Below, piece by piece: positions 8,266 to 18,329 of a DNA stretch of 64,000 nt. The number at the start of each line of letters is the position of its first letter. Position 1 is the stretch's first letter. This DNA is from an archaeon. Lineage in GTDB: Archaea; Thermoproteota; Nitrososphaeria; Nitrososphaerales; Gagatemarchaeaceae. The DNA lies in NCBI GenBank assembly GCA_021791695.1, contig JAJYWC010000002.1:1-64000 (forward strand), read 5' to 3'. The notes under the pieces were generated by a model. That model was not told where the DNA came from and ran no database searches. It was given only the letters and a program-made list of their open reading frames with translations. The position numbers and the translations under genes are program-made.

Positions 8266-9240
8266 TTGGTCGAGTTTACGCTTTCGATAACTGGTCTGCA
8301 CGCCAGAAATGAGTCCACCATCCAGGCCACCCAGGACTGGGAGAGGGGGAGGATTGGCTCAGCCGCGCTCAGCGCCGCCTTCCGGGCTGACTGCGACTCA
8401 CTGGTCGCGCTCCAGTCGGAGGTGGGTGCTGATTACATCTCGGACGGCCAGCTCGGCACCGGGTGGCAGGACTTCCTCAGACCCCTGACGAACGGGCTCC
8501 ACGGGGTCAAGAAGGGAGCCATGGTGAGATGGTACAACACCAACACCTTCTACTACGCGCCGGTCGTCTCGGGGCCGATAAGCAGCAAGGGGGGCGCCGT
8601 ATGGAGCAAGCTCGAGCGGAGGCACGTTAAGAAGGGGAGGTTCCGCGTCGCGATACCTGACCCGCTGACCTTCTCCGACCTGGCCGAGGACCATCACTAC
8701 GGCAGCAAAGAAAAGCTCATGTTCGCATACTCCGATGCTCTCCGCGACGAGCTCCTCACCCTCAGCGAGAACGGCGTCGCGTACGTCCAGTTCTCCTCTC
8801 CGGCGCTCGTCGCCCGTTTCAGGGACAAGGCGGTGAGCAGGGACCGTCTCGGGCAGCTCGGCGAGGCGATAAGGTCTGCGACCAGGGGCTCGTCCATGCG
8901 GACCGGATTTCACACGATATTTGGGGACGCGTCCCACCATATACCAGGCATCTTCGACGCAATACCCACCGACGACGTCGGTTTCGATTTCACGCAGACA
9001 GACCCAGCGTCACTGTCGGGCACCAAGAAGGGGATAATCGCTGGCGTCGCAGATGCGCGGTCCACGTACCTTGAGAGCATCGAGGAGCTCCACGAAACGG
9101 TCGAGCAGGTCATCGACACGACCGGGTCAAAGAGGGTCACTATAGCACCCTCGTCCGACCTCAGGTTCATCCCGCGAGTCTCGGCCGACGAGAAGCTGAG
9201 GAGGCTCGGCGCGCTGAAGAGAGAGCTAGGAGAGAGATGA
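8266..9240 (+). CDS. MetE-like (cobalamin-independent methionine synthase N-terminal-type) protein lacking Zn ligands
   Basis: 324 aa; N-term FTLSITGLHARNESTIQATQDWERGRIG; equivalents of the catalytic HxC and C motifs read FHTIFGD and APSSDLRFIPR. Confidence 0.75.
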   Translation: MVEFTLSITGLHARNESTIQATQDWERGRIGSAALSAAFRADCDSLVALQSEVGADYISDGQLGTGWQDFLRPLTNGLHGVKKGAMVRWYNTNTFYYAPVVSGPISSKGGAVWSKLERRHVKKGRFRVAIPDPLTFSDLAEDHHYGSKEKLMFAYSDALRDELLTLSENGVAYVQFSSPALVARFRDKAVSRDRLGQLGEAIRSATRGSSMRTGFHTIFGDASHHIPGIFDAIPTDDVGFDFTQTDPASLSGTKKGIIAGVADARSTYLESIEELHETVEQVIDTTGSKRVTIAPSSDLRFIPRVSADEKLRRLGALKRELGER

Positions 9241-9241
9241 G

Positions 9242-10441
9242 ATGAGCAAGGCATTCCCCACACAGGAGATCGGCAGCCTCCCCAAGTTCGGATGGAGGAC
9301 CAAGCCATTCAGGCAGATGGGCCTGGACGACGAGGACCTCCGTTCGGCCAAACTGTGGGGTGAGAGGATGTCCGTGCCGGGCACCTTGAGGCTACTGAAG
9401 CTCCTCTCGAAGAGGGCGGACTTCTCCGAGGAGGAGAAAAAGGAGATAGTCGACTTTTCTCTGCTGTACGCGATCCGGATGTGCGAGATGGCAGGCGCAG
9501 AATTGACGGAGCACCAGGGCCTCGACCTCGTCTGGAGCGGAGAGCAGGCCAGGACCGAGATGTACGAGACACCCGTCTCTAACATTGGCGGGTTCGAGTT
9601 CATCGGCAAGGTCAGGAGCTTCGACAACAAGTACTGGCGCATGGCCTCGATTCGGGGCTCGCCAAGCTACAAGAACAACTATCACATCGACGAGCTTCTC
9701 TTCACTCAGAAGCACGCGAAGCGGAAGGTCAAGGTTCCTGTCACGGACGCGATAACGATTATGGCGTGGTCGGACAACCACTACTACACGGCCAAGTGGG
9801 CTAGGGAGAAGGTTTCCCCGCTCAGGAAGTCCTTCAACGCCAGGAGGGAGTTCACGCTCGAGCTAGCGGGCATCATCAGGAAGGTCGTCCGCGAGCTGAT
9901 AGAGGGCGGAGTCGAGGAGGTCCAGATAGACATCCCCGCCGCGACCCAGTACCAGTCGGTGGATGACATCAAGCTGGTGGCGGAGTCGTTCAACGAGACG
10001 ACCAAGGGCCTCAGCGCGACGTTCAGCGTCCACAGCTGCTTCCCGCCAGCGGTTGGATATGAGATACTCTTCCCGCAGATCCTCGAGATGAAGAAGTGCG
10101 AGAGGTTCTCCTTCGAGTACGGAAACCGCGACGGCTACCGCAGGGGAGTGGACGACGATGCCAGGCCGGGGCTCACCGACCTGAAGCTCTTCAAGGAGTA
10201 CGGCTACAGGAAGGGTCTAGGCGTGGGCGTTATCCACATCCACACAGACAAGCTGCCGAGCGTCGGCGTGGTCAGGGACAGGATACTCTACGCTGCGAGG
10301 GCGACCGACCTCGACCCGAAGGAGCTCTATGTCAACCCCGACTGCGGCCTGAGGACGAGGAAGCCCGAGGTCGCCCAGAGGATGCTCGACCTGGTGGTCG
10401 CTGGGGCAGATAAGGCGAGGGGTGTGTCCTCCTCCGATTGA
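9242..10441 (+). CDS. MetE catalytic-domain-type methionine synthase
   Basis: 399 aa; QEIGSLPKFGWRTKPF, VEEVQIDIPA, FSVHSC (HxC) and YVNPDCGLRTR (Cys) Zn-ligand motifs. Confidence 0.88.
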   Translation: MSKAFPTQEIGSLPKFGWRTKPFRQMGLDDEDLRSAKLWGERMSVPGTLRLLKLLSKRADFSEEEKKEIVDFSLLYAIRMCEMAGAELTEHQGLDLVWSGEQARTEMYETPVSNIGGFEFIGKVRSFDNKYWRMASIRGSPSYKNNYHIDELLFTQKHAKRKVKVPVTDAITIMAWSDNHYYTAKWAREKVSPLRKSFNARREFTLELAGIIRKVVRELIEGGVEEVQIDIPAATQYQSVDDIKLVAESFNETTKGLSATFSVHSCFPPAVGYEILFPQILEMKKCERFSFEYGNRDGYRRGVDDDARPGLTDLKLFKEYGYRKGLGVGVIHIHTDKLPSVGVVRDRILYAARATDLDPKELYVNPDCGLRTRKPEVAQRMLDLVVAGADKARGVSSSD

Positions 10442-11685
10442 TGCCCAAGACGACAACCATAGGCAGCTACCCAACGTTCCCAAAACCGGAGGATGTCGAA
10501 TACTACCTGACGATATCCAGCCACGGGCTCGGCGACGAGGTGGTGGACCCATACCTGTGGTGCATCGACGAGGCACTCGAGGATTTCACCTCCGCGGGGA
10601 TAGAGGTGCCCTCGACGGGCCAGTCGAGGGGGGACCTCTACTCGCTCTTCCTCGACCCGAGGTTCGTAAAGGGCCTGCGTTGGAACGGCGCGGAGGTATT
10701 CGTGGAGGACAAGCTCTCGAGGGTCGCGTCGAACAGACTCTCCGACGTCCTGCACGCGCGCAGCGTTCTTCCCTCACACTATGAGATCAAGGAGCCGATT
10801 ACCGACGCGTACACTCTGGCGAAATTCGCCAAGATCAGCACCAGCTCGTACCGGGACACGCGCGAGCTCGCCAGGGACATCAACCGTAAGATAGTCATCC
10901 CCGAGATCGAGGACCTGCAGAAGAGCGGTGCCGTCTCCTGGATACAGCTGGACTCGCCCGCTCTGGCCGCTGAGTCCTTCACACCCGACTATTTCCTGGA
11001 GCTCTACGAGGAGGTCGCTTCGGTCACGAAGCTCCCCGTGGTCCTGCATGCGTGCGGTGACACTTCGAGGATATTCCCGGTCCTCACCAAGACAAGGGTC
11101 GACACCATCTCGCTCGACTTCTATCACTACCCGAGGCTCTTCGACGAGGCGAGCAGGCACAACTACGACCAGTTGATAGGTTTTGGGTGCACCGACAGCC
11201 AGAACCTCCGCGTCGAATCGGTAGACGAGACCGCCAAGATGGTCGAGTTCGGAAGGGGGAAGCTCGGCGAGGACCGCATCCAGTTCGTGCACCCGCACTG
11301 CGGGCAGAGGAACCTGAATCGGGAGGTCGCCTACGGCAAGAACGTCACGCTGACGCTAGCGAGGGACGACATCTACTTCGGGCGCCCGGAGGAGGCCTCG
11401 CCCTCTCGGCTCTCGAGCAAGGACTACGACCCCCGCGGGTACTTCCTGGTCTCGATCCTTAGGGACGCCAGAGAGATTCTCGTAACATACTACTCCTACC
11501 AGCACACGCCGATCAAGAGGTTCCGGTCGAGGTCGGCCGAGCGGATATTCCAGTCTCTCAACGAGGAGGCCGACAAGCTGGGCATCGGCCGGCGACACCT
11601 TGCATATCTCACTCTCGAGCTCGGGCGGGCGGAGGCGTCGCTGCAGTCGGGGCTCAACAATTACCGGCAGAAAGTGATAGAGTAG
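10438..11685 (+). CDS. MetE/UroD-superfamily methyltransferase
   Basis: 415 aa; TTIGSYPTFPKPEDVEYYL, WIQLDSPALA, VVLHACGDTS and FVHPHCGQRN motifs; overlaps previous gene by ATGA. Confidence 0.8.
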   Translation: MMPKTTTIGSYPTFPKPEDVEYYLTISSHGLGDEVVDPYLWCIDEALEDFTSAGIEVPSTGQSRGDLYSLFLDPRFVKGLRWNGAEVFVEDKLSRVASNRLSDVLHARSVLPSHYEIKEPITDAYTLAKFAKISTSSYRDTRELARDINRKIVIPEIEDLQKSGAVSWIQLDSPALAAESFTPDYFLELYEEVASVTKLPVVLHACGDTSRIFPVLTKTRVDTISLDFYHYPRLFDEASRHNYDQLIGFGCTDSQNLRVESVDETAKMVEFGRGKLGEDRIQFVHPHCGQRNLNREVAYGKNVTLTLARDDIYFGRPEEASPSRLSSKDYDPRGYFLVSILRDAREILVTYYSYQHTPIKRFRSRSAERIFQSLNEEADKLGIGRRHLAYLTLELGRAEASLQSGLNNYRQKVIE

Positions 11686-12558
11686 TTGAGGCTTAGAGAG
11701 AAGATGGAGAGGGGCGTCTTCGTCCGACTCATCGAGGTCTTCCCCCCTAACTTCAGTGCCGACGCTTCCAAGGAGCCTCTCATCGGGATCAAGCAGAAGC
11801 TTCGAGATATGGTCACACGCGTCCAGAAGATAGAGAGCCTTGCGGACGCGATCCTCGTGGCGGACATGAAGGACCCGGCGCGCCTCCAGCTCTCGAGCGT
11901 CTACACGGCGGCAGCCCTGAAGGACGAGCTCGGGGTTGAGGTGATCCCGGTCATCCCCATGCGCGACATGAACAGCAAGGCCATTCGCGCCGCCTTCCTA
12001 ACCTGTCTTTCGCTGGGCCTCGAATCGGTCTCTCTGGTGTGGGGCGACCGGTTCGGCGAACGGGACGGCGCTAAGAACGTCTACGACTACGGATCCCTCG
12101 CCGAGGCCGTGTCCGACGCGAGGTCACTCGCCGACAGGGCCGACGTCCCAGCGACGCTTCTCGCTCCTGTCGACATCTCAGCGCTCTCAACCCCCAGAGG
12201 GGCCCGACTCGCCGAGTCTCGGCTCGACAGCGGTGCCGACTGCCTCCTGGCCCAGCCGCCCACATCCGACAACTCAAGGACCCTTGACAGGCACGTCTCC
12301 CTCCTCAGGGAGAAGCGCCTCGAGAGGAAGGTCCTTCATAACATCTTCCCCTTCCGAAACAGGGAAGACATAGACGCGTGCCGAGCCAGGTTCGGCTGGG
12401 ACCTGCCGAAGGAGCTCGACCTTATCGCCGAGAGGGGGGAGTCCAGCCTGCTGAGGGAGGCCAGAGGCGTCGTCGACGCCCTCGAGCAGAGGAAACTTCC
12501 GGGCGTGTACGTCTCCACCCGGGGCAAGCCGGAGCTTGCACGCTTCATCCTCGACTAG
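11686..12558 (+). CDS. Methylenetetrahydrofolate reductase (MetF)-like protein
   Basis: 290 aa; FVRLIEVFPPNF start, TIM-barrel-like sequence, ILVADMKDPARLQLSSVYTAAALKDELGVEVIPVIPMRDMN; directly abuts the MetE-like genes. Confidence 0.7.
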   Translation: MRLREKMERGVFVRLIEVFPPNFSADASKEPLIGIKQKLRDMVTRVQKIESLADAILVADMKDPARLQLSSVYTAAALKDELGVEVIPVIPMRDMNSKAIRAAFLTCLSLGLESVSLVWGDRFGERDGAKNVYDYGSLAEAVSDARSLADRADVPATLLAPVDISALSTPRGARLAESRLDSGADCLLAQPPTSDNSRTLDRHVSLLREKRLERKVLHNIFPFRNREDIDACRARFGWDLPKELDLIAERGESSLLREARGVVDALEQRKLPGVYVSTRGKPELARFILD

Positions 12559-15792: not shown

Positions 15793-17337
15793 ATGCACCA
15801 GACGGATGGCTCGATAGCGGTCCTGGATTTCGGCGGCCAGTACTCGCACCTAATATGCCGCAGAGTCCGCGGCCTGGGCGTCTACGCAGCACTCTTTCCG
15901 TTCGATACTCCTTACGAGACGCTCAAGACCATGGGGGTGGCGGGCGTCATCCTGTCAGGCGGTCCGGCGAGCGTCTACGATGAATCATCTCCCCACCCCG
16001 ATGGCGCGCTTTTGCGGGGGTCTCTGCCGCTGCTCGGCATCTGCTACGGCTACCAGCTGATAGTGCAGGCTCACGGCGGCGAGGTCCAGAGGGCGTCGAG
16101 GCGGGAGTACGGCAAGTCCAGCGTAAGGATACTCGACAGGTCGGGGTTGTTCGAGGGGCTCTCCCAGGAGAAGATATCCTGCTGGATGAGCCACAGCGAC
16201 TCTGCGACCAAACTCCCGGAGGGGATGTCCGTCCTCGGAGTCAGCGACAACTCTCCCTACGCCGCTGTCCAGTCGGCCGACGGAAGGCAGTTCGGCGTGC
16301 AGTTCCATCCTGAGGTCGCCCACACCGAAAGGGGGGACGCGATGCTCTCGAACTTCGTGTTCAACGTCTGCGGTGCCAAGAAGGGCTGGTCGATGTCGAA
16401 CTTCCTCGAAGAAACGGTCTCGGAACTGTCGTCCAGCATCGAGGGGAGGGTCCTCTGTGCGGTCTCGGGTGGCGTGGACTCCTCGGTGGCATCGGTCCTC
16501 CTGAACCGCGCGGTTGGTGACAGGCTGCAGTGTGTCTTCATCGACACGGGCCTCCTCCGCGAGGGAGAGGCCGCCGAGGTCTCCAAGTTCCTCAAGGAGG
16601 ACCTCGGGGTCCCGGTCGAGTTCGTAGATGCTGCAGACCTCTTCCTCAGATCACTGAAGGGGCTGTCGGACCCGGAAGAGAAGAGGAAGGTCGTGGGCCG
16701 GGTCTTCGCCGACGTCTTCGAACACTACGCGCGCACCAATGGCCCGTTCTCTTACCTCGCGCAGGGGACGCTCTATCCCGACGTGATCGAGAGCGGCCGC
16801 TCGTCGGCCCCCGCCTCCGTGATAAAGACCCACCACAACGTCGGCGGTCTGCCGAAGGACCTCTCGCTCAGAGTCGTGGAGCCGCTCAAGGCCCTTTACA
16901 AGGACGAGGTAAGGTCCCTCGGAGCCATACTCGGGCTCCCGGCGAGGGTGCTTCAGAGACATCCGTTCCCGGGTCCTGGCCTGGCCGTCAGGATAATCGG
17001 CGAGGTCACGCCGGACAAGCTGAGGATATGCCGGCAGGCGAACAAGGTCGTGGAAGATGTCCTCCTCGAGGACGGGGTCTACAACAAGGTCTGGCAGGCA
17101 TTCGCCTATCTCGGCGACGACAGGGTCACGGGAGTGCTGGGCGACGAGCGCAAGGTCGGCTACCAGGTGACGGTCAAGGTCGTCGAGTCCCAAGACGCAA
17201 TGACGGCTGACTGGTACCGCGCTTCGCACCAAATGCTCGAGAAGATATCGAACAGGATAACCAACGAGGTCGAGGGCGTGGTCAGCGTCGTCTACGCCAT
17301 CTCCTCAAAGCCGCCTGCGACGATAGAGCCACAGTGA
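15793..17337 (+). CDS. guaA: GMP synthase (glutamine-hydrolysing), GATase plus ATP-PPase
   Basis: IAVLDFGGQYSHLICRRVRGLGVY; GICYGYQL; VSGGVDSSVASVLL; LQRHPFPGPGLAVRI. Confidence 0.97.
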   Translation: MHQTDGSIAVLDFGGQYSHLICRRVRGLGVYAALFPFDTPYETLKTMGVAGVILSGGPASVYDESSPHPDGALLRGSLPLLGICYGYQLIVQAHGGEVQRASRREYGKSSVRILDRSGLFEGLSQEKISCWMSHSDSATKLPEGMSVLGVSDNSPYAAVQSADGRQFGVQFHPEVAHTERGDAMLSNFVFNVCGAKKGWSMSNFLEETVSELSSSIEGRVLCAVSGGVDSSVASVLLNRAVGDRLQCVFIDTGLLREGEAAEVSKFLKEDLGVPVEFVDAADLFLRSLKGLSDPEEKRKVVGRVFADVFEHYARTNGPFSYLAQGTLYPDVIESGRSSAPASVIKTHHNVGGLPKDLSLRVVEPLKALYKDEVRSLGAILGLPARVLQRHPFPGPGLAVRIIGEVTPDKLRICRQANKVVEDVLLEDGVYNKVWQAFAYLGDDRVTGVLGDERKVGYQVTVKVVESQDAMTADWYRASHQMLEKISNRITNEVEGVVSVVYAISSKPPATIEPQ

Positions 17338-18329
17338 CCCTCATGTCGCACTTCCTGGGGCCGCAGACCAAGCTCGCTGAGCTGCACGTGCACCTAGGCA
17401 GCTCTGTCGACCCCGCAGTCATGTGGGAGATAGCCCACGCTCAGGGGATCAGGCTCCCGACCAAAGACTACTGGCGCTTCGTGGACATGGTCACCGTGAA
17501 CCCGCGAAAGGTGAAGTCGTTCTCGGACTATCTCGAGATGTTCAAGTGGACCGAGCTCATCCAATCGAGTCCTCTCGCCATAGAGCAGTCAGTATACCAC
17601 ACCATCGCCGGGGCGTACCGCAAGAACAACATCACGCTGCTAGAGCTGCGATTCAACCCGATGAAGAGGAACAGGGGTGGCGAGCAGGACCTAGACCAGA
17701 TAATGATGGCCGCGGTCCGCGGGATCGACCGTTCGTCGCTCGAGTATCCGGTGAGGACCGGACTCATCATCTGCCTCGACCGCACGTTCGACGTAAAGAG
17801 GAATGAGATACTCCTGGAGAAGGCACTGCGGTTCCAGAACCGCGGAGTGGTCGGGATAGACATGGCCGGCCCCTCCAACCCGGACTTCCGCTATTCTGAC
17901 TACCGCGACATATACCAGCGAGCCAGGGAGAAGGGTCTGGGTCTCACGGTACACGCCGGTGAGGACGAGGGCCACGGATCGGTCAGGCAGGTCATCAAGC
18001 ACCTCTCACCCGACCGAATCGGCCACGGAGTACGCTCGATCGAGAACGACAAGACCATGGAGATGGTCCGCGAGAACGGGATCACGCTCGAAGTATGCCC
18101 CTCCTCGAACCTCAACACAAGGGTCATCAAGGGCGTGGGACACATGAAGCAGACGTTCCGCTCGCTCGAGAAGAATCACATCAAATACACGATTAACACG
18201 GACGGCCCCGAGATGCTAATGACGAACCTCAGGGGTGAGATCGACTTTCTCCTCAGGAACGGGATCCTCGACGAGGACGACGTCCTGAGGGCGAACAGGT
18301 ACGCCTTCGCGGCGTCGTTCATCAGGTAG
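17334..18329 (+). CDS. Adenosine deaminase-family protein
   Basis: AELHVHLGSSVDPAVMWEIA; GLTVHAGED; DRIGHGVRS; EVCPSSN; INTDGPEM. Confidence 0.92.
   Translation: MTLMSHFLGPQTKLAELHVHLGSSVDPAVMWEIAHAQGIRLPTKDYWRFVDMVTVNPRKVKSFSDYLEMFKWTELIQSSPLAIEQSVYHTIAGAYRKNNITLLELRFNPMKRNRGGEQDLDQIMMAAVRGIDRSSLEYPVRTGLIICLDRTFDVKRNEILLEKALRFQNRGVVGIDMAGPSNPDFRYSDYRDIYQRAREKGLGLTVHAGEDEGHGSVRQVIKHLSPDRIGHGVRSIENDKTMEMVRENGITLEVCPSSNLNTRVIKGVGHMKQTFRSLEKNHIKYTINTDGPEMLMTNLRGEIDFLLRNGILDEDDVLRANRYAFAASFIR

What the first reader, a model, noticed from the sequence alone, without database searches (positions are those of the whole stretch)
8266..12558. Four-gene MetE/MetE/UroD-MetE/MetF-like cassette: possible uncharacterised methyl-transfer pathway
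Seen: three consecutive, non-identical MetE/UroD-superfamily proteins and a MetF-like protein, abutting or overlapping (10438 ATGA overlap; 11685/11686). Only the second (HSC...NPDCG) and third (HACGD...HPHCGQ) keep Zn-ligand-like motifs; the first has lost them. Established: archaea have folate-independent 'core' MetE proteins that use methyl donors other than methyl-THF-glutamate, and split MetE halves exist. Inference: the Zn-less subunit may bind the methyl carrier, the second make methionine and the third act on a different methyl substrate or acceptor, with the MetF-like protein supplying reduced C1 units.
Basis: partly seen in the sequence, partly recalled or inferred. Interest (0 to 1): 0.72.

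Follow-up and report, generated by a model that had tools for sequence, protein, structure and literature searches.

The report
Archaeal methionine cassette with pterin-domain synthase
In a group of non-ammonia-oxidising soil archaea, the known two-part methionine synthase and a folate-reductase relative sit beside a second, previously undescribed methionine-synthase-like enzyme with a tail domain also found on enzymes that handle one-carbon pterins; this suggests a way of making methionine with neither vitamin B12 nor the usual second barrel.

Summary
The four genes are real. They lie on one strand, abut or overlap, and stand in the order g1-g2-g3-g4 wherever the contig is long enough (one family excepted), down to about 30-45% identity, in Gagatemarchaeaceae and other Nitrososphaeria. 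g1+g2 (8266-10441) is the known archaeal split MetE: g1 is the zinc-less N-barrel and g2 the catalytic half with all zinc and homocysteine residues. g4 is a divergent MetF/MTHFR relative that keeps Glu28, Asp120 and mostly Gln183. The new part is g3 (10438-11685). It is not a split-MetE paralogue (AU test p=9e-5). It groups with standalone archaeal "core" methionine synthases and carries a C-terminal PterinBD-DUF4346 domain, which elsewhere in the phylum sits on DHPS-like, MtrA and MtrA-thymidylate-synthase proteins. All seven zinc and homocysteine positions are kept. Its closest standalone relatives lie in corrinoid protein-core-MtrH operons. MtrH is absent from all 16 g3 genomes tested, and a corrinoid methyl-carrier domain from 16 of 17. 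In one family the cassette is just g4-g3. Best reading: g4 makes methyl-pterin, and g3 transfers the methyl to homocysteine with DUF4346 holding the pterin. Against this, g3 lacks the MetE "DIHSP" histidine, so the donor is inferred, not shown.

The parts
8266..9240 (+). g1: N-barrel (zinc-less) subunit of split MetE, 324 aa
   Evidence: PF08267 Meth_synt_1 1.3e-12, its best Pfam hit; groups with splitN proteins of other Thermoproteota; Cys643 position is Y/F in 18 of 24 and Glu665 position is Asp in 24 of 24, the changes described for the T. maritima MetE N-barrel (PMC539065)
9242..10441 (+). g2: catalytic subunit of split MetE, 399 aa
   Evidence: PF01717 9e-23; PRK04326 189 bits and PRK01207 199 bits; zinc ligands H264, C266, E292, C368 and homocysteine residues S12, E101, D230 conserved in the whole set; clade 100/100
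10438..11685 (+). g3: core methionine synthase fused to PterinBD-DUF4346, 415 aa; start TTG 10438 or ATG 10441
   Evidence: PF01717 3.8e-15 plus PF14251 1.5e-11; invariant S10, Q62, D172 (homocysteine) and H204, C206, D227, C288 (zinc); AlphaFold2 model pLDDT 88, best PDB matches all MetE, 2.2e-18
11428..11670 (+). PterinBD-DUF4346 domain of g3 (residues 331-411)
   Evidence: signature D..GyF...hxxYxxxELgxAExxL...YxQ shared with DHPS-like, MtrA and MtrA-ThyA proteins
11686..12558 (+). g4: divergent MetF/MTHFR-family protein, 290 aa; start TTG
   Evidence: PF02219 8.8e-7, 29.0 bits, cut-off 24; hhalign of its alignment against E. coli MetF 97.6%, 3.3e-12; positions of E. coli E28 26/26, D120 26/26, Q183 21/26

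Best explanation
The cassette is a B12-independent methionine-forming module of aerobic, folate-using Nitrososphaeria. g4, a MetF-type reductase, reduces methylene-tetrahydropterin (probably THF) to the methyl form. Two homocysteine methyltransferases draw on it: the conventional split MetE (g1 N-barrel + g2 zinc barrel), and g3, a core synthase of the MesA-like lineage that acquired a C-terminal DUF4346 domain. In g3 the zinc site (H204, C206, D227, C288) binds and activates homocysteine, and DUF4346 presents the methyl-pterin, doing the job that MtrH plus a corrinoid protein do for its standalone relatives and that the second barrel does for MetE. Shown: gene order, family membership, residues, phylogeny, domain fusion, absence of MtrH, and absence of MetH/corrinoid carrier domains in nearly all genomes tested. 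Inferred: pterin binding by DUF4346, methyl-pterin as donor, homocysteine as acceptor, and reduction by g4.
For: All 22 g3 carriers among 400 genomes of the class also have a strong g4; 12 of the other 378 do (Fisher 6e-28, not corrected for relatedness). g3 and g4 are neighbours in every carrier locus examined. In G326 (another family) the cassette is g4-g3 alone, the order is reversed, g4 is a clear MTHFR (7.3e-27) and g3 is the only PF01717 gene found. Homocysteine and zinc residues of g3 are invariant. DUF4346 elsewhere in the phylum is fused to DHPS-like proteins, MtrA and MtrA-ThyA, all tied to one-carbon pterins. The nearest standalone cores lie in corrinoid protein-core-MtrH operons. 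MtrH is absent from all 16 g3 genomes searched; PF00809 gives at most one hit per g3 genome, at DHPS size and score, so no MetH was seen; B12-binding_2 is absent from 16 of 17. The mesophilic thaumarchaeotal ancestor gained FolD and Fhs, and Gagatemarchaeaceae are predicted aerobes (PMC10640624).
Against: g3 lacks the conserved DIHSP histidine that is a candidate proton donor for methyl-folate in MetE (0 of 23), whereas g2 has it in 19 of 23; in this respect g3 resembles the corrinoid-using cores. DUF4346 has no solved relative by sequence and no PDB fold match at E <= 0.001, and its pterin-binding name is not backed by an assay I could find. Split MetE next door makes a second methionine synthase seem redundant. 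g4-like paralogues also stand alone in genomes without any PF01717 gene, so g4 is not bound to methionine synthesis. MtrA and CoFeSP were not searched for in the g3 genomes.
Confidence: 0.5

Rival explanations
1. g3 is a conventional corrinoid-dependent core synthase: it takes the methyl group from a corrinoid protein or free methylcobalamin encoded elsewhere, and DUF4346 is a docking or regulatory domain.
For: g3 is sister to cores that sit beside a corrinoid protein and MtrH; it lacks the MetE DIHSP histidine as they do; characterised core synthases use methylcobalamin in vitro (PMC7005905, PMC7857596). The window's own genome holds one B12-binding protein on another contig (L225).
Against: No MtrH in 16 of 16 g3 genomes, no B12-binding_2 domain in 16 of 17, no MetH seen; the constant partner is a MetF relative. 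The organisms are predicted aerobes (PMC10640624), while MesA-C were found solely in strict anaerobes (PMC7857596).
Confidence: 0.2
2. g1, g2 and g3 form one complex or serve one split MetE: g3 is an accessory subunit that feeds methyl-pterin (through DUF4346) to g1-g2 or stabilises it.
For: Constant gene order g1-g2-g3-g4 with overlaps.
Against: g3 keeps a complete catalytic set in all members, which an accessory subunit would not need; in G326 g3-g4 occurs without g1-g2; g1-g2 occur without g3 in other families.
Confidence: 0.12
3. g3 methylates another thiol or another acceptor, with split MetE as the only methionine synthase.
For: Split MetE is adjacent and complete, so a second homocysteine methyltransferase looks redundant; the Zn/TIM-barrel superfamily includes CoM methyltransferases, and weak MtaA/MtbA matches are seen.
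Against: Ser, Gln and Asp that bind homocysteine in MesA/MetE are invariant in g3, and Gln instead of Glu484 is the MesA/MesC state (PMC7857596); in G326 g3 is the only PF01717 gene.
Confidence: 0.13
4. The cassette is nothing more than split MetE plus MetF with an inactive, drifting third paralogue.
For: g1, g2 and a MetF relative form the known or simplest set.
Against: g3 is the best conserved of the divergent members: 415 aa alignable over the full length, about 60 invariant columns including all catalytic ones, across families 40-60% identical; the DUF4346 signature is kept too.
Confidence: 0.05

Closest known systems
Split MetE of archaea (Pyrococcus PF1268/PF1269 type; PMC7857596)
   Same: g1+g2: separate adjacent N-barrel and catalytic barrel; the zinc-less N half; all zinc and homocysteine residues in the catalytic half
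   Different: here followed by g3 and g4; g2 of the g3 carriers has extra segments (near residues 30-80 and 185-205) compared with g2 of relatives that lack g3
MesA / core-MetE (PRK00957; M. thermautotrophicus MTH775 type, and D. mccartyi core-MetE)
   Same: single catalytic barrel, S/Q/D homocysteine set of MesA and MesC; H-C-D-C zinc set as in MesB; sister group in the tree
   Different: 138 bits against the PRK00957 cut-off of 258; C-terminal DUF4346; a MetF relative as neighbour; no MtrH; aerobic THF-using hosts
Corrinoid protein-core synthase-MtrH operons of another Thermoproteota family (L189, L194)
   Same: closest standalone cores; same overall task predicted (methyl-pterin to homocysteine)
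   Different: there the methyl group passes through MtrH and a corrinoid protein; g3 genomes lack MtrH
MetF/MTHFR (PF02219)
   Same: g4 keeps the E28, D120 and mostly the Q183 positions of E. coli MetF
   Different: very divergent; below all NCBIfam MTHFR cut-offs; cofactor and pterin unknown
DUF4346 proteins: DHPS-like (TIGR00284), MtrA-DUF4346, MtrA-ThyA-DUF4346
   Same: same C-terminal domain and signature
   Different: none of those examined carries a methionine-synthase barrel

Membership tests
Split MetE (g1+g2) | adjacent separate N and C halves, each under about 400 aa, N half best matching Meth_synt_1 | tested here: met
   g1 324 aa, g2 399 aa, adjacent; g1 PF08267 48.4 bits against PF01717 39.4 bits
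Split MetE (g1+g2) | zinc (H, C, E, C) and homocysteine (S, E, D) residues in the C half only | tested here: met
   23 of 23 g2 for all but S433 (21 S, 2 gaps); set absent from g1
Split MetE (g1+g2) | at least 200 bits to PF1269 (Price et al. criterion) | not testable with these tools
   PF1269 sequence not held; proxy PRK04326 gives 189 bits for g2, below its cut-off of 406, and 329 bits for the g2 of the relative L124
MesA (g3) | reaches the PRK00957 equivalog cut-off | tested here: not met
   138 bits against 258; one control genome passes, which was not named
Core methionine synthase, general (g3) | single barrel with zinc and homocysteine residues; groups apart from split MetE | tested here: met
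   (99/92.9; grouping with g2 rejected, p-AU 8.6e-5)
Core methionine synthase, general (g3) | no folate- or pterin-binding domain | tested here: not met
   carries PF14251, named PterinBD-DUF4346; pterin binding itself is not shown
MesB, MesC, MesD (g3) | family-specific similarity thresholds; for MesD a MesX (DUF1852) partner | not tested
   reference sequences not held; no MesX next to g3 (and Pfam of neighbours)
MTHFR/MetF (g4) | PF02219 above gathering score and catalytic Glu28/Asp120 | tested here: met
   29.0 bits against 24; E and D 26 of 26
MTHFR/MetF (g4) | flavin-dependent reduction of methylene-pterin | not testable with these tools
   needs an enzyme assay

The most novel reading that the evidence does not exclude
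g3 is a new kind of core methionine synthase that takes the methyl group directly from a methyl-tetrahydropterin held by a C-terminal DUF4346 domain, a module shared with MtrA, DHPS-like and thymidylate-synthase fusions, so that neither cobalamin and MtrH nor the second MetE barrel is needed; with g4 it makes a two-gene methylene-pterin-to-methionine route.
Probability: 0.42. Interest if true: 0.66.

Novelty: new variant of a known kind. Interest (0 to 1): 0.52.

Why it matters
Core methionine synthases were described from strict anaerobes that pass methyl groups through corrinoid proteins, and from MesD bacteria with an unknown donor (PMC7857596). Here a core synthase occurs in predicted aerobic archaea without a detectable MtrH or MetH, fused to a domain that recurs on one-carbon-pterin enzymes. 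If it works as proposed it is a third solution to methyl transfer from pterin to homocysteine, it gives the function-unknown DUF4346 a testable role, and it bears on how the MetE double barrel arose.

Tried and rejected
Rejected: g3 as a paralogue of the split-MetE catalytic half (AU p 8.6e-5); g3 as a UROD protein; g1 as a degenerate enzyme that lost zinc recently (it shows the general N-barrel changes). The first tree held one misframed row (f27core_L196), and the second tree, built without it and three other rows, is the one used. Search outside the phylum was not possible: the single genome-contig scan with the one g3 sequence found only Nitrososphaeria. The NTP transferase after g4 is conserved only in the close genus and is left out of the cassette.
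Full report
WHAT IS THERE. The finding holds up. Four + strand ORFs, 8266-9240, 9242-10441, 10438-11685 and 11686-12558 (324, 399, 415 and 290 aa), abut or overlap. The window belongs to a 72% complete genome of 1.8 Mb whose close relatives include Candidatus Gagatemarchaeum stordalenia (83% identity over g3), of the family Gagatemarchaeaceae. That family, formerly Group I.1c, is predicted to respire aerobically and to use organic carbon (PMC10640624).

GENE BY GENE. g1 is a MetE N-barrel: Meth_synt_1 is its best Pfam hit, it groups with the N halves of other Thermoproteota, and it has lost the zinc and homocysteine residues in the manner described for the T. maritima N-barrel, with Tyr/Phe for the first Cys in 18 of 24 and Asp for Glu in 24 of 24. 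g2 is the catalytic half, with zinc H264, C266, E292, C368 and homocysteine S12, E101, D230 kept throughout the set apart from two rows with a gap at S. Together they are the split MetE that Price et al. described in archaea (PMC7857596). g4 is a MTHFR relative: above the Pfam cut-off, 97.6% hhalign probability against E. coli MetF, and the positions of E28, D120 and Q183 are kept in 26, 26 and 21 of 26.

g3 IS THE NEW PART. Its first 310 residues form a MetE-type barrel. The AlphaFold2 model has pLDDT 88 and its best PDB matches are all MetE. S10, Q62, D172, H204, C206, D227 and C288 are invariant. The tree places it with standalone archaeal core synthases (99/92.9) and rejects a common clade with g2 (p-AU 8.6e-5). 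Residues 331-411 are PterinBD-DUF4346. In Thermoproteota the same domain ends DHPS-like proteins (DUF6513-Pterin_bind-DUF4346), an MtrA protein, and an MtrA-thymidylate-synthase fusion, with a shared signature. All those partners make or use one-carbon pterins, which is the ground for reading DUF4346 as a pterin module; no assay was found.

DISTRIBUTION. Full-length g3 occurs in 22 of 400 Nitrososphaeria genomes, in four families. All 22 have a strong g4, against 12 of the other 378 (Fisher 6e-28 without correction for relatedness). Where the contig allows, the order is g1-g2-g3-g4 down to about 38% (g2), 43% (g3) and 30% (g4) identity. In family f16 (G326) only g4-g3 is present, in reversed order, with no other PF01717 gene. 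Other families have a MetF relative plus g1-g2 without g3 (L124, L125, L136). No core-DUF4346 fusion was found outside Nitrososphaeria among 398 genomes of the phylum.

WHAT REPLACES THE CORRINOID ROUTE. The nearest standalone cores sit in a three-gene operon: a corrinoid protein (B12-binding_2 + B12-binding), the core synthase, and MtrH. MtrH was found in none of 16 g3 genomes but in all three core-only genomes tested. B12-binding_2 was found in one of 17 g3 genomes, the window's own, in a 296-aa protein far from the cassette. PF00809 hits in g3 genomes are single and of DHPS size, so no MetH was seen. The published gain of FolD and Fhs in the mesophilic thaumarchaeotal ancestor (PMC10640624) fits THF as the pterin.

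MECHANISM. Proposed: g4 reduces methylene-THF; g3 binds homocysteine at zinc and takes the methyl group from methyl-pterin held by DUF4346; split MetE does the same in the classical way. Shown: sequence, gene order, residues, phylogeny, presence and absence. Inferred: ligands, donor, acceptor, reductant. The main counter-evidence is that g3 has no DIHSP histidine (0 of 23; g2 19 of 23), so any protonation of the pterin must use another residue. The presence of two synthases side by side is also unexplained; different pterin forms, polyglutamation or growth conditions are possible.

VERDICT. Three of the four genes are a known kind. g3 is a new variant of core methionine synthase, well supported as a family and plausible but unproven as a methyl-pterin enzyme. 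Interest 0.52.

Noticed in passing
L189:4710-7109, L194:4896-7317: Three-gene operon corrinoid protein-core methionine synthase-MtrH in another Thermoproteota family: apparently a split corrinoid methionine synthase; the core scores 243-256 bits, just under the PRK00957 cut-off of 258.
   Followed up: partly
L094:247-1743, L097:250-1740: L094 encodes a triple fusion MtrA-thymidylate synthase-DUF4346 in one chain (Pfam); L097 looks alike by its C-terminal sequence but was not scanned.
   Followed up: partly
L209-L216, L218: Lone g4 paralogues, several beside an elongation factor gene, in genomes of the same family; at least three of these genomes (G096 on one contig, G175, G253) have no PF01717 match at all. 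What a MetF relative does there is unknown.
   Followed up: partly
L037:9928-12398, L046:5520-7909, L047:3597-5923: In three genomes the split-MetE pair lies on very long branches (1.4-1.8 changes per site) while g3 beside it is ordinary; the catalytic residues of g2 are still there.
   Followed up: no
L133:6958-7929, L134:2925-3854, L142:6334-7272, L189:5551-6441: Standalone cores have Ala or Ser at the Glu665 zinc-ligand position, unlike g3 (Asp) and g2 (Glu).
   Followed up: no
L225:1045-1932: B12-binding protein (B12-binding_2 + B12-binding, 296 aa) in the window's own genome; the other 16 g3 genomes searched have no such match. Possibly a B12-based sensor.
   Followed up: partly
window 17334-18329: Adenosine deaminase family protein about 5 kb downstream; a link to the methyl cycle (adenosylhomocysteine recycling) is conceivable but untested.
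   Followed up: no
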